The notes beneath the pieces were generated by a model, which was not told the DNA's origin, made no database searches, and worked only from the letters and a program-made list of their open reading frames with translations. From NCBI GenBank assembly GCA_025363475.1, contig JANYDS010000070.1, forward strand, positions 1 to 46,988: DNA of 46,988 bases. The letters are read 5' to 3'. The translations under genes and the position numbers were made by a program. This DNA is from Terriglobia bacterium (GTDB taxonomy: Bacteria > Acidobacteriota > Terriglobia > Bryobacterales > Bryobacteraceae). Of the stretch, positions 9,607-26,554 are shown in pieces. How positions within the stretch are numbered: the stretch's first letter is position 1; each line of letters starts with the position of its first letter.

Positions 9607-10851
9607 ATGTCAAATCCGAGCAAGCCTAACCGTCGCGGATTTCTGAAGGGTGGCACCGCTCTGGCCGGTTTGGCCGCTGCGGGCGGAGCCAAAGAAGCTG
9701 CCGCGCAGGCCACTAATCAGAGCGCTGCAGCTAAGAAGACAGAAGAAGTGATTGGCTATGGCGAGCGCTCCCGCTTCATCACGTCCAAACGCTACCCGGT
9801 GGCGGGGCGTCACTCTCCGGATGAGTTCGGCCTCATGTTCCACGTGCTCACGCCACTGCAGGATTCGGTGGGCATCATCACGCCGTCGTCACTTCACTAT
9901 TTCGCCACTCACCGCGGCTCGTTCATCCCTGACATCGATCCGAAAGAGCACCGGCTGATGATCCACGGGATGGTGGATCGGCCGTTGATTTTTTCCGTGG
10001 ATGAACTGAAGCGCCTGCCGTACGTAACCCGCGTGCATTTCATTGAATGCCTGGGCAACCGTGCACGCGCGGCAGACGCCACGGTTCAGGACACGCACGG
10101 TCTTACCAGTTGCGCCGAATGGACTGGCGTGCCGCTCTCTCTGCTTCTCAAAGAAGCGGGCGTGCAGCAGGGCGCTGCGTGGATTGTGGCCGAAGGCGCC
10201 GAAGAAGTGAAAGGGTCTTCGAGCATCCCGATCAATAAGGCCATGGACGACTGCATGGTCTGCTATGCCATGAATGGTGAACCGATCCGTCCGCAGCAGG
10301 GCTTTCCGCTGCGCCTGATGGTCCCTGGATTTGAAGGTATTTATCAGATTAAGTACCTGCGCCGTATCAAGGTGGTGGACCGCCACTACCTTACATACGA
10401 CGATTACGGCCACATTACGGCGGACCCGAAGGCAGCGGCGCTTACGAACCAGATCGGGCCCAAATCTGTGATCACTTATCCCTCCGGCGGCCACAAATTG
10501 CAGGGGCCGGGTTTTTATGAAATCAGCGGTCTGGCGTGGTCCGGGGCCGGGGCAGTACGGGGGGTTGATGTTTCCGTGAATGGTGGCCGCAGTTGGCAGG
10601 CGGCGGAACTGCGCACCCCGGCATATCCGATGGCGCATACGCGCTTCGGTTTTCATTGGCAGTGGGACGGCCAGCCTTGTACGCTGATGTCACGCTGCAC
10701 GGATGAGCTGGGCAGCGTGCAGCCGTCGCGTCAGGAAGTGGGCAAGTACTGGAATGATCCGCCGGAAAGGATTCGCGTTCGCGGCAACGACAATACGATT
10801 CAGCCGTGGAAAGTTGGCGCGGACGGAGGGGTGACCAATGGCCTTGCGTAA
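9607..10851 (+). CDS. soxC: SoxC-type sulfite/sulfane dehydrogenase molybdenum subunit
   Basis: SoxC is the molybdopterin subunit of the periplasmic sulfane dehydrogenase SoxCD, related to sulfite dehydrogenase SorA. The 414-residue protein starts with a Tat signal (NRRGFLKGG, residues 8-16). The conserved SoxC N-terminal block (PVAGRHSPDEFGLMFH, TPLQDSVGIITPSSLHY) is present. The Mo-ligand is Cys148 in IECLGN, and PQQGFPLRLMVPGFEG and the dimerisation domain (GVDVSVNGGRSW) follow. The cytochrome gene soxD overlaps its 3' end by 14 bases. No soxXYZAB genes occur in the window, so the pair may serve sulfite oxidation or an incomplete Sox route. Family is certain; substrate is open. Confidence 0.92.
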   Translation: MSNPSKPNRRGFLKGGTALAGLAAAGGAKEAAAQATNQSAAAKKTEEVIGYGERSRFITSKRYPVAGRHSPDEFGLMFHVLTPLQDSVGIITPSSLHYFATHRGSFIPDIDPKEHRLMIHGMVDRPLIFSVDELKRLPYVTRVHFIECLGNRARAADATVQDTHGLTSCAEWTGVPLSLLLKEAGVQQGAAWIVAEGAEEVKGSSSIPINKAMDDCMVCYAMNGEPIRPQQGFPLRLMVPGFEGIYQIKYLRRIKVVDRHYLTYDDYGHITADPKAAALTNQIGPKSVITYPSGGHKLQGPGFYEISGLAWSGAGAVRGVDVSVNGGRSWQAAELRTPAYPMAHTRFGFHWQWDGQPCTLMSRCTDELGSVQPSRQEVGKYWNDPPERIRVRGNDNTIQPWKVGADGGVTNGLA

Positions 10852-11425
10852 GCTCATTTTGGGCGCTGCGGCGTTTTGTTTCTGTCAGATCGTTTGGGCA
10901 CAATCACCTGCCTACGGCGTGGGCCGCAAACCTACTGCTGAAGAGATCAAGGCCTGGGATATATCGATCGGGCCGACGGGCAAGGAACTTCCGGCCGGGC
11001 ATGGGACGGCGAAGGAAGGCGCGGCAATTTATAAAGTAAAGTGCGCCGGGTGCCATGGCGCGGACGGCTATTCAAAGAATCATGCTCCCACGCTGATTCA
11101 GAGCAAGATTCCGCGGCCCAAGGAAGGTGTTGTGCATTGTCTTGAACCCTGTGTGGACGATAACAATACGATGGCCGTCCATTCGCCTTACGCGAACGTA
11201 ATTTGGGATTACATTAACCGTGGCATGCCGCTGGGCCGGGAAGGTTCGCTCAAGCCCGATGAGGTGTATTCGCTCACGGCGTTCCTGCTCTTCCGGAACA
11301 ATGTGATCACAGAGGCTGAGTTGATGAGTGAGACAACGCTGCCGGCGGTGAAGATGCCGAATGTCAACGGGTTTGCTGTGGCGGAGTGGAAGCACGGAAC
11401 TCCGCGGCTTCAGCGCTATCCCTGA
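10838..11425 (+). CDS. soxD: SoxD-type c-type cytochrome subunit, monoheme
   Basis: The product is a secreted cytochrome c (signal MALRKLILGAAAFCFCQIVWAQ) that takes electrons from the SoxC molybdenum centre. It carries the SoxD hallmark AWDISIGPTGKELPAGHGT (near residues 39-57), a single heme motif CAGCH (69-73), and candidate distal methionines in RGMPLG. Paracoccus SoxD has two heme domains, so this is the short monoheme form. A further Cys pair (CLEPC, near residues 106-110) may form a disulfide. The gene overlaps soxC, consistent with one transcript, and is followed by a terminator hairpin. Confidence 0.9.
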   Translation: MALRKLILGAAAFCFCQIVWAQSPAYGVGRKPTAEEIKAWDISIGPTGKELPAGHGTAKEGAAIYKVKCAGCHGADGYSKNHAPTLIQSKIPRPKEGVVHCLEPCVDDNNTMAVHSPYANVIWDYINRGMPLGREGSLKPDEVYSLTAFLLFRNNVITEAELMSETTLPAVKMPNVNGFAVAEWKHGTPRLQRYP

Positions 11426-13066: not shown

Positions 13067-13336
13067 ATGGTGATGTGCGTCAAGTTCCAGCGCGAGATGC
13101 CCGGGCTTGACGAGATTCCCTTTGAGGGACACCCCATCGGGCAGCGCATTTACGACGGCGTTTCGAAAGAAGCCTGGAAGATGTGGATTGAGCATATGAA
13201 AATGCTGCTGAACGAATACCGGCTGAACCTTGCAACGAAGGAATCGCAGGAATTTCTGGTGCAGCAGATGGACGATTATTTCTTCGGCGCAGGCTCGGCA
13301 CTGCCGCCTGATTTTGTGCCTGCCCAGGCGAAATAG
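13067..13336 (+). CDS. YggX-like Fe(2+)-trafficking / oxidative damage protection protein
   Basis: The 89-residue protein aligns with the YggX family, which protects iron-sulfur proteins and handles Fe(II): MVMCVKFQREMPGLDE, IGQRIYDGVSKEAW, HMKMLLNEYRLNL and the C-terminal MDDYFFG are the family blocks. The conserved near-N-terminal Cys is Cys4. I chose ATG 13067 because the family starts directly with this beta strand; an in-frame ATG at 13010 would add 19 residues (including MACGGGVPTNLKEEP) without a good ribosome binding site. It ends 16 bases before the converging ATP-grasp gene. Confidence 0.88.
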   Translation: MVMCVKFQREMPGLDEIPFEGHPIGQRIYDGVSKEAWKMWIEHMKMLLNEYRLNLATKESQEFLVQQMDDYFFGAGSALPPDFVPAQAK

Positions 13337-13352: not shown

Positions 13353-14582
13353 TCAGATGACGGGCAGTTTCGCCGCGATGCGGAAGCGGAGCTTTGAGTG
13401 GGCCTGGCGCAGCGAACGATCCACCTGCTCTGAAGTACTTCCTCTGGCGAAAATGAAACCCAGGTAGCTGGAGCCTTCCGGCAATTTCTCCAGCGTCTGG
13501 CCTGCTTTGGCTGTGATGGCAATTTCTTCCACTCCGCCGACTGCGGTTGCGTTGTCAACCCCCTCAGCACTTTCGAAGACGCCTGAAGCCGGGATCGGAA
13601 TCATCATTACGCCTGAGGCAATGCGCTCACGGATGAAGTGCGTGACGTCCTCACCGGCGGCGTGGCGCAGCAGGATCTCTTCCAGCGGGACTGCACCGTC
13701 ATAACGCAGCGCCTTCGCACACAGGCCGCCGATGGGACGCGGGGCCACTTCGAGGACCCAGGTCTGTTCGCCGTCATCGCGCATTTCGGCGTGAACCGGG
13801 CCATGTGTCAGACCCAGCGCGCGAACAGCTTGTTCCGCCGCCGGGACGAGCCTCGACAACGGCTGGCGTGGCGGCGTGAGATAGATGCTCTCTTCGAAGA
13901 ACGGTCCGTCAAGCGGGTCGGGTTTCTCGAAAACCGCCAGTGTCTGCAGACGTCCGGCGGTTACCAGCCCTTCCAGCGCGTACTCGCGCCCGGCGAGGAA
14001 ACTCTCGACCTGAATGTATTGGTCCTGATCTTCACCGGACAAGCGGATTTCAGGTCTTGCGAGCAGAGCTTTGATTCTGCAAAAGGCGGTGGTGAATTCC
14101 GCAGCATTGTTGACGCGGATCACGCCGCGGCTGGCGGAAAGACCGAGCGGTTTGAGGACGCAGGGATACGTGGCCAGACGCGAGTGCTGCGCCGGGTCAT
14201 CCGCAGTGCTCATGCGTGAAAAACGCGGCACCGGTAAACCTGCCTCCGCGAAGCGTTGTTTGGTGTGGAATTTGTTGCGGGCGGCATCGACTGACGCCGG
14301 TGAGTGAAACGGCACGCCGAGAGCCACGGCAGCGAGCGCCGCGAAATATGCAGGCCGGTCACCGACGGCGAGGATGCCATCGAACGGACCCGCCGCAATG
14401 ATTGCCTGCACCGACGCCGGGTCATTAAAGCGGATCGGAACAGCCCGGTCGCGCCAGGGATCTTCGAGAACATGACAGCGATCTGTGGCGAGAGCGACCT
14501 CAATACCGAGGCGGTGCGCGGCTTCGGCGAAGCTTCTGATCTGGTAGCCAGTGGTTGCGGCAACAAGCAGAATGCGTTTCAT
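13353..14582 (-). CDS. ATP-grasp ligase-like protein coupled to a radical SAM gene
   Basis: This 409-residue cytosolic protein has an N-terminal PreATP-grasp Rossmann-like domain (residues 1-105, beginning MKRILLVAATTGYQIRSFAEAA), then the ATP-grasp core: LKPLGLSASRGV for the phosphate loop (near residues 147-158), YIQVESFLAGREYALEG, and the metal-binding strand WVLEVAPRPIGG near residue 275. ATP-grasp enzymes join a carboxylate to an amine or thiol through an acyl phosphate. Its ATG lies inside the stop of the upstream radical SAM gene (ATGA overlap), so the two are translationally coupled. The substrate is unknown; biotin carboxylase-like and peptide-ligase-like roles are both possible. Confidence 0.85.
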   Translation of the reverse strand: MKRILLVAATTGYQIRSFAEAAHRLGIEVALATDRCHVLEDPWRDRAVPIRFNDPASVQAIIAAGPFDGILAVGDRPAYFAALAAVALGVPFHSPASVDAARNKFHTKQRFAEAGLPVPRFSRMSTADDPAQHSRLATYPCVLKPLGLSASRGVIRVNNAAEFTTAFCRIKALLARPEIRLSGEDQDQYIQVESFLAGREYALEGLVTAGRLQTLAVFEKPDPLDGPFFEESIYLTPPRQPLSRLVPAAEQAVRALGLTHGPVHAEMRDDGEQTWVLEVAPRPIGGLCAKALRYDGAVPLEEILLRHAAGEDVTHFIRERIASGVMMIPIPASGVFESAEGVDNATAVGGVEEIAITAKAGQTLEKLPEGSSYLGFIFARGSTSEQVDRSLRQAHSKLRFRIAAKLPVI

Positions 14583-15937
14583 AGCCCGGCGAGTTGTTCG
14601 GCGGTTGGCTCGGCGCAGCAGTACCAGGCCTCACTCAGTTGCGGGGCCGGAGTTTCGGGAATCAGCGTTGCGCTGTTCGGGAGAGCGCCGCCGTGCGCCA
14701 GCTCCCAGATACGCGCGAAGATCTGGTGCCGGGGGGACTGATGGCGGTCTTCGGCCTGAATGAGCGACTGTAAATCGCTGCACAATTTGTCCATGGCAGG
14801 GTCATCGTGGTGCCAGCGGTAAGAGAGCGCGTCAGAATCGAAGTCGCCGGTTTTACCTTCGAGTTCAGGCAATTCAAGGAGTCGCGAGCCGGCGGGGATT
14901 AGCAGCCGGATGGCCAGTTGAATGGGAGCGACATTGCCGACCAGACCCAGCGCCGCGATGGTTTCAAGAAGGTCGCGGTAGTCATCGCGCGTGGTCCACG
15001 GGGTGAAGGTGACGAAGGTGGGAGAAAGCGTTAAGCCGGCGGCGCGGGTGAGGTGGACGGCTTCGATGAAATCGGCGCGCGTATGGCCCTTGTCGAGGAG
15101 GTCGAGGACGTGGTCATTGAGGGATTCGACCGCCGAAATAATGAACAGACAGCCTGTTAATTTGAGGCCGGGGAGCAGGTCGCGGTGTTTGAGGAGATGC
15201 TCGATTTTGATGGTGGCGTCCCAGGTGAGCGCGGGGAATTCGGCATGCAAGGCCTCGGCTATCGCCATTGCATGGGTGGGGCCGTTGAAAAAGTCGGGAT
15301 CGCCGAAGGTGATGTGTTCGGCTCCAGCGGCCACCTGCTGGCGGATGTCGGCGAGGACGACGTCGCGCTGCACCACACGGAAAGCGCCGTTGTAGACGGG
15401 CACGACGGGGCAATGCCGGCAGAGGTGCTTGCAGCCGCGGCTGGCTTCCGTGGAACCTGCGATTTTCGTGGAACCGCCCGCGCTGAGGGTGGCGTAGGAG
15501 GACAAGACAGGAAATTGTGAGCGATCCGGCAGGAGAAATTGCAGGCGGGGCAGCAGGGCGAGCGGCGTTTCGCCTGGGTTGGCATCGGCCAGATTTGCGA
15601 GGGCGGCTTCAAATTCTGCGCCGAGAATGTGACTTACGCCGAGGCCTCGCAGGAACGGTTCATTCATAGGCGCGTACAGCCCATAGCAACAGATGTTGGC
15701 GTTTGGCTTCGTTTCGCGGACACGCCGGATTAGCGGGACGGCAAGGCGCGTCGCGGTGTGCATGGGCAGGTAGAACGCGATGAGGTCGGACTGGCAGACG
15801 GCTTCGAGCGGGAAGCTCTGGCGCGAGGTATCGATGTAAGTGACCTGATGACCGCGCGCACTGAGCCAGGCGGCGGCAGAGGCAAGGCCGAAGGGTTGGC
15901 GGCCGAGTTCATAGGTGGAAATCAAGGTTACTTTCAT
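14579..15937 (-). CDS. CCAEP-tail radical SAM protein with B12-binding-type domain
   Basis: The 452-residue protein has an N-terminal cobalamin-binding-like Rossmann domain (residues 1-130) and a radical SAM barrel with the 4Fe-4S motif Cys169-x3-Cys173-x2-Cys176 (RGCKHLCRHC), followed by GAEHITFGDPDFFNGP. The C-terminus reads WYCCAEP plus eight residues (438-452), the signature of the CUAEP/CCAEP-tail radical SAM family, in which some members carry selenocysteine. Here both positions (440, 441) are TGC cysteine codons, so no selenocysteine is needed. It overlaps an ATP-grasp gene by four bases. The family's reaction is not established. Confidence 0.88.
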   Translation of the reverse strand: MKVTLISTYELGRQPFGLASAAAWLSARGHQVTYIDTSRQSFPLEAVCQSDLIAFYLPMHTATRLAVPLIRRVRETKPNANICCYGLYAPMNEPFLRGLGVSHILGAEFEAALANLADANPGETPLALLPRLQFLLPDRSQFPVLSSYATLSAGGSTKIAGSTEASRGCKHLCRHCPVVPVYNGAFRVVQRDVVLADIRQQVAAGAEHITFGDPDFFNGPTHAMAIAEALHAEFPALTWDATIKIEHLLKHRDLLPGLKLTGCLFIISAVESLNDHVLDLLDKGHTRADFIEAVHLTRAAGLTLSPTFVTFTPWTTRDDYRDLLETIAALGLVGNVAPIQLAIRLLIPAGSRLLELPELEGKTGDFDSDALSYRWHHDDPAMDKLCSDLQSLIQAEDRHQSPRHQIFARIWELAHGGALPNSATLIPETPAPQLSEAWYCCAEPTAEQLAGL

Positions 15938-20638: not shown

Positions 20639-23287
20639 ATGGCTGCAAAATTCATGCTGGTGGCGTTGCTGCTGCCTGCGTTTTTTTTGGTTGCGCAACA
20701 ACCAGTTCCGACAGCACCAGTCAAGCCCGCTTCTGAACCAGCTGCCGAGCCATCCCTGGAACCGGTTCCGCCCGCCGCAGTTGAATCATCCACGCAGCAA
20801 AATCGTTCGCTCAATCTTGCGGGCCAGACTGATGCCTCCAAAGGCGAGGCACGCCGCAATGAAAACGTGCAGGTCAACATGGTGGACACCAACGGTGCCA
20901 GAGACCTCAACAAACGCATGGGTGTAACGGCCACCACCTTTGATGAATTCCGCGGCGACCGGGGTTATTTCGGCAGTGAGTTCGGCAATGCACCCCGCGC
21001 GCTGGTGCATGTGGCGCCGCAAGCGGGAGCCGGCTTCCACGGCAGTGTCTTCTGGGGCCATAACAACAGCATCTTCAGCGCCAGGGCATTTTTTCAGGCG
21101 GGGCCGGTAAAACCTTCCCGCGAAAACAGTTATGGCACGACGTTCGGCGTGCAGCCGTGGAAGGGTGCATTCTTCAGTTTCAGCGGGTCACAGGAAAAAA
21201 ATCGTGGCAATGTAAACGGCAATATTCTGATCCCGTTGCCGGCGGAGCGTGTCCCGCTCGCGACAGACCCTGCGGTACGCGCGGCGATCCAAATCGCGAT
21301 GAGCGGCTACCCCAATGCGAACCCCAACCGGCCGGACATCGCAGCCCGGTCACTGAACACCAACGCGCCCCAGAGTATCGATACGGATTCGGTCACCGGA
21401 CAGCTTTCGCAGAAGTTGCGGACCAAAGAAAGCATCACCGCCCGTTATGCGTTTACGGCGCAAAAAATTGATGCGTTCCAGTTCATTCAGGGAGCCAACC
21501 CGAATACCCGCAACAAGGCGCATACCGCACGACTTTCGTGGAACCGGTCATTGGGAGCCGGGATCATTGTGGATGCTTCACTAGGCTTCGACCGCCAGGC
21601 CGTAGCGCTCACGCCCACGGCAGACGCGCCCGCCACCAGCCTTATCACGGGCCTGAATACGCTGGGCCCGATTCCGACGATTCCCATAAATCGGAGGCAG
21701 AACCGTTTCCGCTATGCGACGTCAGTGAATTCACAGCACGGGCGTCATACTTTTTCCGCAGGCTTTTCGGGCACAAGGCTTCAGTTCAATGGCACGGAGG
21801 ATGAAGCGTCACTGGGAATTTTCCAGTACCGGAGCGATTTCGGTAATGACGCGATTACAAATTTTCGGCTCGGGCTGCCTTCCAGCTACAGCATCGCGCT
21901 GGGCACCACGTACCGCGCCTTCCGGAACTGGGAACTATTGGGCTACGCGGGTGATCACTGGGCAGTCAACAACAATCTGACCCTGAACTACAGCCTGCGC
22001 TTTGAGCCAGTAACGCGGCCTGTGGATGCCTCGGGACGAGGCAAACTGCGGTTCGATTCGGACTGGAACAACGTAGCGCCGTCTGCCGGGTTCGCCTTGC
22101 GACTGCCGAAGAAGGCAGGGACGATTCGGGCTGCGTACGGAATCATGTTCGGCCAGATTTTCCCGGCAACGTTCGGCATGGAACGTGCGGAACCCGGCTC
22201 CAGCGTGCGGCTAACGGTGCAGGCACCCTCGCTGTTGAATCCGCTGGCGGGCATCAACGTTTCCAATCTCAAAACGACAGTTGGTTCGGACTATGTTGTG
22301 AGCCCGGATCTGGCAACGCCGTATTCGCAGCAGTACAACTTTACCTGGGAGCGGGAACTGGGGCGCGAGTGGAAGCTGCAAATGAGTTACATCGGCAGCC
22401 GTTCCATAAAATTGTTCAGCACTTTTGTGCAGAACCGCGCCCACGTGATTCCTGGACTTCCACTGACGACGCTCAACGTGAATGACCGGCGGGCGGACCC
22501 GACGAAGCAGGAAGTGATCCTGCTGGGAAATTCCAACCGGGGCTATTATGATGCCGGGCGGGCCACGCTGACGGCACCGCGGTGGCACCACATGTCGCTG
22601 ATGATTTCGTACTGGTTCAGCAAAGCAATCGACCTGGGGTCAGACTACAACTCGACGGGCGCGGGACCTGAAACAAGGCGGGGCGCCGGGCAGTATGAAT
22701 TTGAAAGCCACAGAGACCTGAAGGGCCTGAGTGCCTTTGACCAGCCGCACTCATTCATGGTGCAGGCAAACTACGATCTGCCGCGGGTTTCGGGGCGCTT
22801 CGCGTCAGCCATTACACGCGGGTGGAGCGTGAATGGTGTGGGTTTGATGAAGAACGGCACACCCTTTGTAGTGGATTCAGGCAGCGACGGGCCAGGCTTT
22901 GGCAATGTGGACGGGTCAGTGGGTGACCGGGTCAACATCATTGACCCCAGTATTCTGGGGCGCACAATCGGCAATCCGGATACGTCACGCCAGTTGCTGC
23001 CCCGGTCTGCTTTCCGCTTTATCAATGCGCCGACGGAGTTGAGCGGCAACCTGGGAAGAAACGTTTTCAGGCGCGGACGAATCGCCAACGTAAATGCGTC
23101 TCTGGCGCGTACCTGGAAACTGCCGCGCGAGTGGCAGATGATGCTGCGGGCTGAATCCGTCAATCTGCTCAATACACCGCAATTTGCCGAGCCCGGTTTT
23201 TCCCTCACCTCAACAAGTTTCGGCCAGATTACGAACACGCTCAATGACGGACGAACCTTCCGTTTCCAGCTGCGGTTAAGCTTTTAG
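20639..23287 (+). CDS. TonB-receptor-like outer-membrane barrel, copy 1
   Basis: The 882-residue protein has a Sec signal (about 20 residues), a Pro/Ala/Glu-rich linker (residues 21-55), a short conserved block (QQNRSLNLAGQTD, EARRNENVQVNMVDTNGAR) and a large barrel with the aromatic terminus FRFQLRLSF. TonB-dependent receptors import large or rare nutrients across the outer membrane. I do not see the N-terminal carboxypeptidase-regulatory domain or a canonical plug, so the plug region is either reduced or divergent. The gene at 23870 is a close paralogue along almost the whole length. A MarR gene lies between them. Substrate unknown. Confidence 0.8.
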   Translation: MAAKFMLVALLLPAFFLVAQQPVPTAPVKPASEPAAEPSLEPVPPAAVESSTQQNRSLNLAGQTDASKGEARRNENVQVNMVDTNGARDLNKRMGVTATTFDEFRGDRGYFGSEFGNAPRALVHVAPQAGAGFHGSVFWGHNNSIFSARAFFQAGPVKPSRENSYGTTFGVQPWKGAFFSFSGSQEKNRGNVNGNILIPLPAERVPLATDPAVRAAIQIAMSGYPNANPNRPDIAARSLNTNAPQSIDTDSVTGQLSQKLRTKESITARYAFTAQKIDAFQFIQGANPNTRNKAHTARLSWNRSLGAGIIVDASLGFDRQAVALTPTADAPATSLITGLNTLGPIPTIPINRRQNRFRYATSVNSQHGRHTFSAGFSGTRLQFNGTEDEASLGIFQYRSDFGNDAITNFRLGLPSSYSIALGTTYRAFRNWELLGYAGDHWAVNNNLTLNYSLRFEPVTRPVDASGRGKLRFDSDWNNVAPSAGFALRLPKKAGTIRAAYGIMFGQIFPATFGMERAEPGSSVRLTVQAPSLLNPLAGINVSNLKTTVGSDYVVSPDLATPYSQQYNFTWERELGREWKLQMSYIGSRSIKLFSTFVQNRAHVIPGLPLTTLNVNDRRADPTKQEVILLGNSNRGYYDAGRATLTAPRWHHMSLMISYWFSKAIDLGSDYNSTGAGPETRRGAGQYEFESHRDLKGLSAFDQPHSFMVQANYDLPRVSGRFASAITRGWSVNGVGLMKNGTPFVVDSGSDGPGFGNVDGSVGDRVNIIDPSILGRTIGNPDTSRQLLPRSAFRFINAPTELSGNLGRNVFRRGRIANVNASLARTWKLPREWQMMLRAESVNLLNTPQFAEPGFSLTSTSFGQITNTLNDGRTFRFQLRLSF

Positions 23288-23381
23288 TTACTTTCCGGCG
23301 CAAAACCAAATCCGACCTGAAGAACCACTTGCTTGCGCGCGTGGCTCGGTCAGCGGTTACGCAGCGCGTGTGTTAAATTAG

Positions 23382-23393
23382 TTGCACATGCAA
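23382..23393. promoter_or_regulatory. candidate MarR operator over the marR start codon
   Basis: TTGCA-CA-TGCAA is an inverted repeat spanning the marR start codon (ATG 23388). MarR-family dimers often bind TTGC-N4-GCAA-like palindromes, so repression of its own gene and the downstream receptor is plausible. Only one copy was found here. Confidence 0.45.
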
Positions 23394-23873
23394 TCAATAA
23401 AGACGGCGGCCAGGCGGATTCCGGACCTTCCCTGTGCCTGTGCCACGCTGCGGCGCGCGGCCCGGGCCGTGACACAAATCTACGCGGACGAATTTCAGGG
23501 CATGCTGGAAGGTTCACAATTTTCGCTGTTGAACGTCCTGGCCAAACGTCCCGGCATCAGACAAACCGACATTGCGCAAATTTTGCTACTGGACAAGACG
23601 ACACTCTCACGCAATCTAAGCGTGATGAAGCGGAACGGCTGGCTTGAGCGGGTCGAAACCGACGACCGCCGGGAGCGCGGGTTTCAACTGACCGTACGCG
23701 GTACGGAAATCCTGGAGCAGGGCAGGCCCGCGTGGCAGCGTGCGCAAAAACGGCTGAGGGTGGCATTGGGATCAAGCGACTGGCAGCAGCTGTTCGAAGT
23801 GGCCAACACGGTGACCCGCACGGCCTGGCACTTGACGGGAACGAACACAGAGGGGCGGAGCACCAATCAATGA
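23388..23873 (+). CDS. MarR-family transcriptional regulator
   Basis: The 161-residue protein is a winged-helix regulator: ATLRRAARAVTQIYADEF (dimer helix), FSLLNVLAKRPGIRQTDIAQ, the recognition helix DKTTLSRNLSVMKRNGWLER, and the wing with DDRRERGFQLT (DxRxxG motif), then a C-terminal dimer helix. An Ala-rich Cys pair (CACA, near residues 16-18) could sense redox or metal. Its stop overlaps the start of the second receptor gene (ATGA), so the two are translationally coupled. It probably controls the receptor pair; the ligand is unknown. Confidence 0.9.
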   Translation: MQSIKTAARRIPDLPCACATLRRAARAVTQIYADEFQGMLEGSQFSLLNVLAKRPGIRQTDIAQILLLDKTTLSRNLSVMKRNGWLERVETDDRRERGFQLTVRGTEILEQGRPAWQRAQKRLRVALGSSDWQQLFEVANTVTRTAWHLTGTNTEGRSTNQ

Positions 23874-26554
23874 GGACGCTGAATTTAACCCGGATCATGA
23901 CCACTCTGCTGACGGTGGCATCGTTTGCGACTGCCCAGCAAAGTCCCGCTCCGGCTCCAGCAATCACGGCTCCGGCGTTCGAACCTGTCCCTGCTCCGGC
24001 AGACGATGTCGAGACTCCGGCTGAAGACAAACCAGCCGCAGGCGCTGAACCCACACCACAGCAGAACCGGACGTCTCTGAACCTGGCCGGACAGACCGAT
24101 ACAGCGAAGGGCGAAGCACGCCGGAATGAAAACGTTCAGGTGAATTTGGTGGATACCAACGCGGCGCGGGAACTGAACCGGCGCCTGGGAGTGACCGCGA
24201 CCACGTTCGATGAATTCCGCGGCGACCGGGGCTATTTCGGCAGCGAGTTCGGCAATGCGCCCAGACTGCCTATCCATGCCGCGGCACAAACCGGAGCAGG
24301 GTTCCATGGCAATGTGTTCTGGAACCACAACAACAGCGTGTTTAGCGCCCGCGCGTTTTTTCAGGTGGGCTCGGTGAGACCCTCGCGGGTGAATCAGTAT
24401 GGCTCAACGTTTGGCTTTCGTCCGTGGAAAGGTGCGTTTTTCACGTTTAACGGATCTCAGGAAAAGAGCCGCGGCAATGTGAATGGGAATGTCCTGATTC
24501 TGCTGCCGGGTGAGCGCACCGCGCTGGCCACGGACCCCGCAACACGCGCCCTGGTGCAGAAAGCGCTGGACGGTTTCCCGAAAGATATTCCGAACCGCCC
24601 GGACATCGCGGCAAGATCGCTCAACACGAACTCGCCGCAGCTCATCGATACCGATTCGGCTACCGGTCAGCTCACCCAGAAACTAAGGTCGAAAGAAACT
24701 GTGACGGCCCGGTACGCGTTCACTGGGCAGAAGGTGGATGCGTTTCAGTTCATTCGCGGGTCGAATCCCAATACCCGCAACAAATCACACACGGCCCGCC
24801 TGTCATGGAACAGCGCCATTGGAGATCACATGATACTTGACGCTTCGGTGGGTTTCGAGCGGCAGGCTACGGTACTTTTGGCCGTCAATGATGCGCCCGT
24901 AACAAGCGCCGTTACAGGCTTGAGTCTGCTGGGCCCCAACCCTACGATTCCACTGAATCGCCGTCAGAACCGCTTTCGATACGCCGCTTCCATGACGCAG
25001 CAGCGCGGACGCCATTCCCTGAGCGCCGGCATATCCGCGACTCGCTTGCAGTTCAACGGCACCGAGGATGAAACGGGCCTCGGTATTTTCCAGTACCGCA
25101 GCGATTTCGGTCGCGACGGGATCACCAATTTCCGGCTGGGGACAGCTTCTTCCTACAGCATTGCGCTTGGCAGCACGTACCGTGCGTTCCGCAACTGGGA
25201 TGCCCAGGTTTACGCGGGCGACCGCTGGGCAATCAACAACTCCCTGACGCTGAATTACAGTCTGCGTTATGAGCCCGTGACCCGTCCGGTTGATGCGTCC
25301 GGAAGGGGCCGTGTGCTCTTTGATTCAGACCTGAACAATGTCGCGCCCTCAGCAGGATTCGCGCTGCGGCTGCCGAAAAAAGCGGGGACAATCCGGGCTG
25401 CTTACGGCATAATGTTCGGCCAGATCTTCCCCGCCACATTTGCATTTGAGCGGTTTGAAGCGCCCTATAGTATCCGGCTGACGCTGCAGGCACCGTCGCT
25501 GGTTAATCCGCTGGCGGGCCTCGATCTGGTCAACCTGAAGAACACGCCGACAACAGGCTACGTCGTCAGTCCGGATCTGGCTACTCCTTATTCGCAACAA
25601 TATAACTTCACGTGGGAACGGGAACTGGGCAAGAACTGGAAAATGCAACTGGGTTATCTGGGCAGCCGTTCCGTGAAGCTGTTTGCTTCTTACATGCTGA
25701 ACAGGGGCCAGCCGGTGAACGGCATTCCGCTTACTACAGCCACCGTGGGACTGCGGCGTGCGGACCCATCGAAACAGGAAGTGGACTATCTTAACAACGC
25801 CAACCGCGGGTATTATGACGCTGGCCGCGTAACTCTGACCGCACCGCGCTGGCACAGGATGTCATTAAATATTTCCTACTGGTTCAGCAAAGCGATCGAT
25901 ACCGGCACGGACTACAACTCGACAGGCGCGGCGCTCGACGGGCGGCGCGCAGGGGCTCAGTATGAGTTTGAGAGCCAGCGGGACATGAAGGCACTGAGCG
26001 CGTTCGATCAGCCACACGCATTTCTGGTGCAGGGCAACTACGAACTTCCACGCATATCCGGCAAATGGGCGTCCGCAATTACGCGCGGCTGGAATTTCAA
26101 CGGCGTGGGCTTGCTGAAGAACGGGACACCGTTCATTGTGGACACTGGCAGTGACGGCCCCGGCTTCGGGAATGTGGACGGCACAGTGGGTGACCGGCCT
26201 TCCATAATTGACCCGGGCATCCTGGGCCGTACCATCGGGAATCCGGATACTTCGCAGCAGTTACTGCCGCGCTCGGCATTCCGTTATATCAATACTCCAA
26301 CAGAGTTATCCGGCAATCTGGGGCGCAATGTTTTCCGCCGGGGCAAGATCGCCAACATCAATGCTTCGATCTCGCGCGACTGGAAACTACCGCGCGAGTG
26401 GCAGATCAACCTGCGAGCGGAATCCATCAACCTGTTTAATACGCCGCAGTTTGCTGAGCCTGGATTTTCGATCAGTTCGCCCAGCTTTGGCCAGATCACG
26501 AATACGCTGAATGACGGACGCACGTTCCGCTTTCAACTGCGCCTGTCTTTTTAG
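23870..26554 (+). CDS. TonB-receptor-like outer-membrane barrel, copy 2
   Basis: The start ATG 23870 overlaps the marR stop; upstream in-frame ATGs lie inside marR and read antisense-like sequence. The 894-residue product has a signal (LTRIMTTLLTVASFATAQQ), a Pro/Ala-rich linker (residues 25-62), and the same blocks as copy 1 (SLNLAGQTD, ENVQVNLVDTNAAREL, FDEFRGDRGYFGSEFGNAP) through to the terminal FRFQLRLSF. The strongest differences between the copies are in the linker and in extracellular-type loops. A recent tandem duplication around marR with later divergence is the simple explanation. It converges on the next gene with a 2-base gap. Confidence 0.85.
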   Translation: MRTLNLTRIMTTLLTVASFATAQQSPAPAPAITAPAFEPVPAPADDVETPAEDKPAAGAEPTPQQNRTSLNLAGQTDTAKGEARRNENVQVNLVDTNAARELNRRLGVTATTFDEFRGDRGYFGSEFGNAPRLPIHAAAQTGAGFHGNVFWNHNNSVFSARAFFQVGSVRPSRVNQYGSTFGFRPWKGAFFTFNGSQEKSRGNVNGNVLILLPGERTALATDPATRALVQKALDGFPKDIPNRPDIAARSLNTNSPQLIDTDSATGQLTQKLRSKETVTARYAFTGQKVDAFQFIRGSNPNTRNKSHTARLSWNSAIGDHMILDASVGFERQATVLLAVNDAPVTSAVTGLSLLGPNPTIPLNRRQNRFRYAASMTQQRGRHSLSAGISATRLQFNGTEDETGLGIFQYRSDFGRDGITNFRLGTASSYSIALGSTYRAFRNWDAQVYAGDRWAINNSLTLNYSLRYEPVTRPVDASGRGRVLFDSDLNNVAPSAGFALRLPKKAGTIRAAYGIMFGQIFPATFAFERFEAPYSIRLTLQAPSLVNPLAGLDLVNLKNTPTTGYVVSPDLATPYSQQYNFTWERELGKNWKMQLGYLGSRSVKLFASYMLNRGQPVNGIPLTTATVGLRRADPSKQEVDYLNNANRGYYDAGRVTLTAPRWHRMSLNISYWFSKAIDTGTDYNSTGAALDGRRAGAQYEFESQRDMKALSAFDQPHAFLVQGNYELPRISGKWASAITRGWNFNGVGLLKNGTPFIVDTGSDGPGFGNVDGTVGDRPSIIDPGILGRTIGNPDTSQQLLPRSAFRYINTPTELSGNLGRNVFRRGKIANINASISRDWKLPREWQINLRAESINLFNTPQFAEPGFSISSPSFGQITNTLNDGRTFRFQLRLSF

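What the first reader, a model, noticed from the sequence alone, without database searches (positions are those of the whole stretch)
13353..15937. CCAEP-tail radical SAM protein translationally coupled to an ATP-grasp ligase
The radical SAM gene ends with the WYCCAEP signature and overlaps the ATP-grasp gene by four bases. The family is named by its tail, yet its reaction is unknown. A cobalamin-type radical enzyme plus an ATP-dependent ligase fits a small-molecule or peptide modification pathway, and the Cys-Cys tail could be a substrate tether or a metal site. Both positions are TGC, so the protein needs no selenocysteine machinery.
Basis: partly seen in the sequence, partly recalled or inferred. 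Interest (0 to 1): 0.75.

Follow-up and report, generated by a model that had tools for sequence, protein, structure and literature searches.

The report
Radical enzyme and peptide ligase partnership
A soil bacterium carries a radical-chemistry enzyme, related to one that makes an arsenic antibiotic and in most relatives containing selenium at its tail, that almost always occurs with the same amino-acid-joining enzyme, pointing to an undescribed pathway for a small unusual molecule.

Summary
The radical SAM gene (14579-15937, minus strand) has the WYCCAEP tail, both Cys TGC, and overlaps the ATP-grasp gene (13353-14582) by four bases. It belongs to NCBIfam rSAM_CUAEP; the next-best family is ArsL, the arsinothricin radical SAM enzyme. 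The partner is an L-amino-acid-ligase (LAL) type ATP-grasp.

The pairing is not local chance. Of 396 Acidobacteriota genomes, 63 have both, 2 only the radical SAM, 5 only the LAL, 326 neither (p = 1.7e-64); in 20 of the 63 they are not within 5 kb. It recurs in other phyla. YggX or an Nfu-type Fe-S carrier lies within 2.5 kb of the LAL in 75 of 96 loci, though YggX itself is common.

The tail pair interconverts: CU (commonest), CC (here), UC and UU (two adjacent UGA codons), at least 19 changes. Genomes without SelB and SelD over cut-off keep both enzymes with CC tails, so selenium is unlikely to be an obligate substrate.

Best reading: an ArsL-like enzyme moves SAM's 3-amino-3-carboxypropyl group to a soft atom held by the tail, and the LAL builds a dipeptide. 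Chemistry and atom are inferred. Cobalamin binding is unsupported; no arsenic operon was found around it.

The parts
14579..15937 (-). rSAM_CUAEP radical SAM enzyme (452 aa), with CX3CX2C at residues 169-176 and tail WYCCAEP at residues 438-444
   Evidence: NF040546 618 bits, cut-off 500; Pfam Radical_SAM; Cys169, 173, 176, 440, 441 in 136 of 136 aligned relatives, U counted as C, rows chosen by tail motif
13353..14582 (-). ATP-grasp, L-amino-acid-ligase type (409 aa)
   Evidence: Pfam ATP-grasp_4, ATPgrasp_N, LAL_C2 above cut-off; BL00235 3vot E 1.3e-34, fold TM 0.83
14579..14582 (-). four-base overlap (ATGA) of the stop of the radical SAM gene with the start of the ligase gene
14606..14626 (-). 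codons of the WYCCAEP tail (TGC TGC for the Cys pair)
   Evidence: sequence; codons
13067..13336 (+). YggX-type Fe(2+)-trafficking protein (likely start ATG at 13067), convergent with the ligase; recurrent neighbour of the ligase
   Evidence: Pfam Iron_traffic 104.8 bits, cut-off 27 (scanned 13070-13333); 55 of 96 flanked LAL loci have YggX within 2.5 kb

Best explanation
The two genes encode the core of a small-molecule pathway. Step 1 (inferred): the radical SAM enzyme works like ArsL. [quoted passage not shown] Step 2 (inferred): the LAL-type ATP-grasp activates this or a partner amino acid as acyl phosphate and forms a dipeptide. A YggX or Nfu-type partner probably supports the iron or Fe-S needs of the oxygen-sensitive enzyme. 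Shown: the near-obligate partnership, the family memberships, the tail interchange at codon level, the ArsL kinship, the recurrent iron partner. Inferred: the ACP chemistry, the dipeptide product, the role of the iron partner, that UGA is read as Sec. Unknown: the atom. Selenium is unlikely to be obligatory; arsenite is not favoured by gene context.
For: Closest characterised family is ArsL (257 bits, next 38.6); 16 plasmid records with ArsL/RCCLKC-type proteins are 27.6-33.6% identical over 85-87% of the length, and four of them share CX3CX2C, a D-x-D motif, F/YxPW, RL..GS.LL and a vicinal Cys pair at the tail. Co-occurrence 63 both / 2 / 5 / 326 of 396; 25 of 27 further genomes without a nearby ligase have it elsewhere. 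Sequence distances of the two proteins track each other over 41 loci, Mantel r 0.85, 0 of 2000 permutations as high (common descent alone would also give this). The ligase is a LAL by Pfam, PDB sequence and fold; its nearest solved relative BL00235 makes Met-Gly and Met-Met (PMC6920838, passages). An ATP-grasp gene also sits in 3 of 4 ArsL-type clusters examined. Tail changes at least 19 times among CU, CC, UC, UU. Five CC genomes without SelB and SelD over cut-off keep both genes.
Against: The protein fails the ArsL cut-off (257 against 450 bits) and lacks the RCCLKC tail. BLAST found no ArsR, ArsM, ArsB, ArsQ, ArsN or aquaporin relative among called genes of the 144 loci, whereas the 4 ArsL-type loci examined lie among ars genes. 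The ligase of two ArsL clusters compared is only 25-26% identical to this one over part of its length, so the shared pairing may be separate recruitment. No exporter or resistance gene recurs widely (POT transporter in 19 of 144 loci). Proximity of the tail to the active site was not measured, since no coordinates were available. No reaction was tested.
Confidence: 0.45

Rival explanations
1. Canonical 5'-deoxyadenosyl radical chemistry: the enzyme modifies an amino acid or small metabolite as AprD4 or OxsB do, and the tail pair is a redox couple (thiol/selenosulfide) that supplies electrons or protects the cluster. The LAL then ligates the product.
For: Best fold matches are AprD4 (E 2.0e-18, TM 0.68), OxsB and MgmA. 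CU/UC/UU/CC pairs are typical redox pairs (recalled). A tail UGA is present in 104 of 138 readable loci, as expected where redox reactivity matters. A molybdopterin-oxidoreductase-like gene (named from its sequence, not scanned) lies a few genes away in 15 of 144 loci.
Against: Sequence similarity to ArsL (257 bits) far exceeds that to AprD4 (29.4 bits). No thiol reductase was recognised among the commonest neighbour families, most of which were not scanned.
Confidence: 0.25
2. The pathway makes a housekeeping thiol or iron-binding peptide that works with YggX or Nfu proteins in Fe-S or iron handling, not a secondary metabolite.
For: YggX (55) or an Nfu-type gene (20) lies within 2.5 kb of the ligase in 75 of 96 flanked loci, never both, also where the radical SAM gene is not nearby and in a Chloroflexi genome. 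One match per gene in each of the 65 and 68 phylum genomes with a hit, with no regulator recognised as recurrent.
Against: YggX is in 172 of 396 genomes, many without the pathway. Bacillithiol BshC (E <= 1e-30) is as common with the pathway as without (24 of 40 against 118 of 207, p 0.86), so it is no replacement for bacillithiol. The pathway is patchy, 65 of 396.
Confidence: 0.2
3. Organoarsenic pathway proper: the tail binds arsenite or methylarsenite and the product is an arsinothricin-type amino acid, then capped as dipeptide.
For: ArsL is the nearest characterised family. ArsL-type clusters of Priestia, Alicyclobacillus and Pantoea plasmids also hold an ATP-grasp gene, beside various of arsM, ArsN1, aquaporin and ArsR genes. 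Thermomicrobium roseum has an arsC about 11.5 kb from its gene of this family.
Against: BLAST of ars proteins found one ArsC (L098) and nothing else among the called genes of 144 loci, whose flanks reach at most about 8 to 10 kb. A two-ligand tail differs from the three Cys of RCCLKC.
Confidence: 0.15
4. RiPP maturation: the pair modifies a ribosomal peptide.
For: Radical SAM and ATP-grasp enzymes both occur in RiPP clusters (recalled).
Against: The ligase is of the free-amino-acid LAL type. In the window the two genes overlap and 16 bases separate the ligase from the next gene. No recurrent small protein of 60 aa or more other than YggX and Nfu types stood out; ORFs under 60 aa were not searched.
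Confidence: 0.05

Closest known systems
ArsL, arsinothricin biosynthesis radical SAM enzyme (NCBIfam NF040542, RCCLKC tail)
   Same: Homology along the protein except the last tail segment; CX3CX2C; D-x-D motif; vicinal Cys at the C-terminus; in 3 of 4 clusters examined an ATP-grasp neighbour
   Different: 257 bits against a cut-off of 450; tail WYCCAEP after a longer linker, not RCCLKC; Cys/Sec interchange; no ars operon found around
rSAM_CUAEP, CUAEP/CCAEP-tail radical SAM (seleno)protein (NCBIfam NF040546)
   Same: Member: 618 bits, tail motif
   Different: Nothing in the family definition is contradicted. The family has a name, but no paper in the searched library contains CUAEP or CCAEP; a 2026 selenoproteome review (PMC13188914) has no NF040546 (passage search), though it lists other radical SAM selenoproteins, TIGR04167 and TrsS
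L-amino acid ligase BL00235 (PDB 3vot)
   Same: Fold and most of the length
   Different: 26% identity in the fold alignment; substrate unknown here
AprD4, OxsB, MgmA (solved radical SAM structures)
   Same: Overall fold
   Different: 14-19% identity in the fold alignments; chemistry may differ

Membership tests
rSAM_CUAEP (NF040546) | score over curated cut-off of 500 bits | tested here: met
   618.2 bits
rSAM_CUAEP (NF040546) | C-terminal C-[CU]-A-E-P tail | tested here: met
   WYCCAEP, TGC TGC
ArsL (NF040542) | score over curated cut-off of 450 bits | tested here: not met
   257 bits
ArsL (NF040542) | RCCLKC tail | tested here: not met
   tail is WYCCAEP
ArsL (NF040542) | lies in an arsenic operon | tested here: not met
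   no ArsR, ArsM, ArsB, ArsQ or ArsN relative among called genes of 144 loci, window stretch 4001-26000 included; one ArsC in L098
ArsL (NF040542) | ACP transfer from SAM to arsenic | not testable with these tools
   needs enzyme assay
L-amino acid ligase (LAL) | ATP-grasp plus LAL C-terminal domain | tested here: met
   ATP-grasp_4 89.7 and LAL_C2 63.7 bits, over cut-offs; TM 0.83 to 3vot
L-amino acid ligase (LAL) | ATP-dependent dipeptide formation from free amino acids | not testable with these tools
   needs enzyme assay
cobalamin-dependent radical SAM | B12-binding domain over Pfam cut-off | tested here: not met
   14.6 bits, cut-off 32.1
cobalamin-dependent radical SAM | DxHxxG lower-ligand motif (recalled; not used by all such enzymes) | tested here: not met
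   3 of 138 relatives (L152, L042, L044), not in the window protein
cobalamin-dependent radical SAM | cobalamin bound | not testable with these tools
   fold like OxsB and like AprD4, which does not decide it
selenoprotein | in-frame UGA | tested here: not met
   window has TGC TGC; 104 of 138 readable loci carry at least one tail UGA (101 CU, 2 UC, 1 UU)
RiPP pathway | conserved short precursor gene nearby | not tested
   ORFs under 60 aa were not clustered

The most novel reading that the evidence does not exclude
A widespread pathway in which a radical SAM enzyme uses a terminal Cys/Sec pair, in at least one Chloroflexi genome apparently two adjacent selenocysteines, to hold an element other than arsenic while carbon is bonded to it, after which an L-amino-acid ligase makes a peptide: a new class of organo-element dipeptide, possibly tied to iron handling.
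Probability: 0.3. Interest if true: 0.9.

Novelty: new variant of a known kind. Interest (0 to 1): 0.72.

Why it matters
NCBI names this enzyme family by its tail, and no reaction for it was found in the searches made here. The data turn it into a testable two-enzyme pathway: a relative with known chemistry (ArsL), a near-obligate ligase partner, a recurrent iron partner, and CC-tailed members (such as this one) that can be made in E. coli without selenocysteine. It would extend carbon-heteroatom bond formation by radical SAM enzymes to bacteria of several phyla, and the UU tail would be a case of adjacent selenocysteines in an enzyme.

Tried and rejected
Arsenic operon: BLAST of ars proteins of four ArsL-type loci against called neighbour genes found one ArsC in 144 radical SAM loci. 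Selenium as obligate substrate: judged unlikely, as G088, G269, G293 and G373 have no SelD match (E <= 1e-20) and G317 only one below the cut-off, none of the five has SelB over cut-off, and all five keep both genes. Replacement of bacillithiol: no association. YggX as a specific third gene: it is in 172 of 396 genomes, so it is a recurrent neighbour, not a marker. POT peptide transporter: 19 of 144 loci, seen as clade-level. VIA-align library was unavailable. Literature: no paper with CUAEP or CCAEP; a four-term search on selenoprotein, radical SAM, selenocysteine and Acidobacteria gave 0. A complex of the two proteins was not predicted, as the two structure jobs went to the single chains.

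Results against or unexplained: G099 and G335 lack a ligase match (71 and 74% complete); G408 and G416 lack one too; 5 genomes have the ligase only; the Thermomicrobium roseum megaplasmid has the radical SAM gene but no ligase match (the chromosome is not in that record) and has an arsC about 11.5 kb away. G110 has a UGA tail but no SelB over cut-off and no SelD match; G080 and G287 (both 75% complete) have UGA tails and no SelB over cut-off. The UU and UC loci show no RNA-structure excess after the codon (3 loci). 21 of 96 flanked ligase loci have neither iron partner within 2.5 kb.
Full report
Observation. The radical SAM ORF lies at 14579-15937 and the ATP-grasp ORF at 13353-14582, both on the minus strand; they share four bases, and the radical SAM protein carries WYCCAEP followed by TAEQLAGL. 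Both Cys codons are TGC. NCBIfam gives rSAM_CUAEP at 618 bits (cut-off 500) and ArsL second at 257 bits (cut-off 450), the next family at 38.6 bits. The ATP-grasp protein has ATP-grasp_4, ATPgrasp_N and LAL_C2 over their Pfam cut-offs; its nearest solved chain is the L-amino acid ligase BL00235 (3vot), E 1.3e-34, E 1.4e-70 with the family profile.

Is the pairing real? The radical SAM family (E <= 1e-60) is in 65 of 396 Acidobacteriota genomes, 61 over the cut-off. A profile of the ligase (E <= 1e-70) is in 68 of the same 396. Both: 63; radical SAM only: 2 (G099 and G335, 71 and 74% complete); ligase only: 5 (G017, G057, G226, G278, G325, the last weak at 288 bits); neither: 326; Fisher p 1.7e-64 (genomes are related, so the p value is only a guide). 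In 43 of the 63 the two genes lie within 5 kb, in 20 not: in G169 they are about 31 kb apart on one contig, in 19 on different contigs. Some of the 19 may still be linked: in G213 the ligase contig begins with the end of the radical SAM gene, and in G054 and G188 both genes lie at contig ends.

Beyond the phylum sample. Of the 80, 45 hold the ligase in the locus and 35 do not. Twenty-seven genomes were searched for it: 26 of these 35, and L098, whose ligase lies about 7 kb away; 25 of the 27 have it, so 24 of the 26. By the coordinates one of them, G407, has it on the same contig about 45 kb away. Nine of the 35 were not searched.

Orientation and coupling. Among 144 loci (63 phylum loci, 80 named, the window; L093 and L123 are the same sequence, L125 and L144 97% identical) the ligase is in the gene list of 88, directly downstream on the same strand in 67, and convergent, divergent or upstream in others. 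Of 26 phylum loci with the ligase downstream within 300 bases, 4 share the four-base overlap of the window. Translational coupling is thus a local form of a wider link.

Third gene. In 96 ligase loci with at least 2.5 kb on both sides, YggX (Fe(2+) trafficking) lies within 2.5 kb in 55, an Nfu-type gene in 20, neither in 21, both in none (relatives are not independent). The Nfu-type representative scanned has a NifU domain and an A-type Fe-S_biosyn domain just at its cut-off, which is the NfuA layout described in PMC8593673 (passages). YggX sits beside the ligase also where the radical SAM gene is not nearby, and in the order YggX-rSAM-LAL on one strand in L148, L154 and L168. But YggX is in 172 of 396 genomes, so it is not specific. 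NfuA regenerates the auxiliary cluster of lipoyl synthase (seen as a reference title), an analogy only.

The tail. Of 144 loci 138 have a readable tail: CU 101, CC 34, UC 2, UU 1 (found by a motif search). The other six: four end at the edge of the DNA held, two have the motif in another frame. On a FastTree tree with four ArsL-type outgroup rows, at least 19 changes of tail state are needed (136 family rows, 43 of 136 inner branches open). L156 has two consecutive TGA codons, L162 and L175 TGA then a Cys codon, all followed by the conserved AEP; their genomes have SelB and SelD over cut-off. SelB over cut-off is missing in 5 of 11 CC genomes and 3 of 48 CU genomes, p 0.004 (five genomes with unreadable tails and G099 left out). 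RNA folding after the codon shows excess structure in CU genes (mean z -1.10, n 97) and little in CC genes (-0.21, n 33), p 2.4e-4, with no difference in an upstream control, p 0.54: this fits a SECIS that decays once Cys replaces Sec. The three UC and UU loci show no such excess. The window genome keeps SelB and SelD although its tail is CC. The five CC genomes without SelB have no SelD over cut-off either and keep both pathway genes, so selenium is unlikely to be an obligate substrate.

Kinship and mechanism. Aligned with four ArsL-type proteins, the core is shared (CX3CX2C, TFGDPDFFN against such forms as TFTDADFFN, FTPW against FNPW or YNPW, the RL..GS.LL stretch), and both families end with vicinal Cys, as RCCLKC in ArsL. 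ArsL is proposed to move the ACP group of SAM to As(III), and cells expressing arsL make AST-OH from As(III) (PMC8552651, passages); a review cites ACP radical transfer for it (PMC12159101, passages; the 2024 JACS paper behind it was seen only as a citation). In three of four ArsL-type loci examined (Priestia, Alicyclobacillus, Pantoea, but not Pseudomonas amygdali) an ATP-grasp gene lies in the cluster; two of these were compared with ours and are 25-26% identical over part of the length. These point to a shared plan: radical SAM makes a gamma-substituted 2-aminobutyrate, the ATP-grasp ligates it. BL00235 makes Met-Gly and Met-Met (PMC6920838, passages), and Met is such an amino acid; this is suggestive only.

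What speaks against arsenic: no ArsR, ArsM, ArsB, ArsQ, ArsN or aquaporin relative among called genes of 144 loci, one ArsC. What speaks against cobalamin: Pfam score below cut-off and no DxHxxG in 135 of 138, though the fold resembles AprD4, OxsB and MgmA. The AlphaFold model is confident (pLDDT 94.1, pTM 0.92), the tail blocks 89 and 86, which suits an ordered site better than a loose tether; distances could not be measured. Bacillithiol BshC is no less common in genomes with the pathway (24 of 40) than without (118 of 207), so the pathway does not stand in for that thiol.

Novelty. The family name exists in NCBIfam; no paper in the searched library contains CUAEP or CCAEP, and the 2026 selenoproteome review has no NF040546 (passage search). 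The partnership, the UC and UU tails, the iron partner and the argument against selenium are new as far as these searches show. I file it as a new variant of a known kind (ArsL-like radical SAM plus LAL).

Noticed in passing
L156:7001-8386 (tail); also L162, L175: Chloroflexi members whose tail has TGA TGA (UU) or TGA followed by a Cys codon (UC), with conserved AEP downstream; adjacent selenocysteines would be unusual.
   Followed up: partly
L204:3483-4706, L205:3436-4668, L206:8572-9777: ArsL/RCCLKC-type plasmid clusters of Priestia, Alicyclobacillus and Pantoea carry an ATP-grasp gene, suggesting that arsinothricin-type products may be turned into peptides there.
   Followed up: partly
L202:11935-13371: The Thermomicrobium roseum megaplasmid gene of this family is annotated as ending at WFC; the next codon is TGA followed by AEP in frame, so the annotated protein is probably cut short of a selenocysteine tail.
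   Followed up: partly
G110 (L013, L076): UGA-tailed gene in a 95% complete genome without a SelB match over cut-off or a SelD match; missing contigs or a recent loss.
   Followed up: no
window 9607-11425: Sulfite-oxidase-like molybdopterin protein gene overlapping a c-type cytochrome gene.
   Followed up: no
window 20639-26554: Two tandem large outer-membrane beta-barrel proteins (OMP_b-brl_4), apparent paralogues.
   Followed up: no
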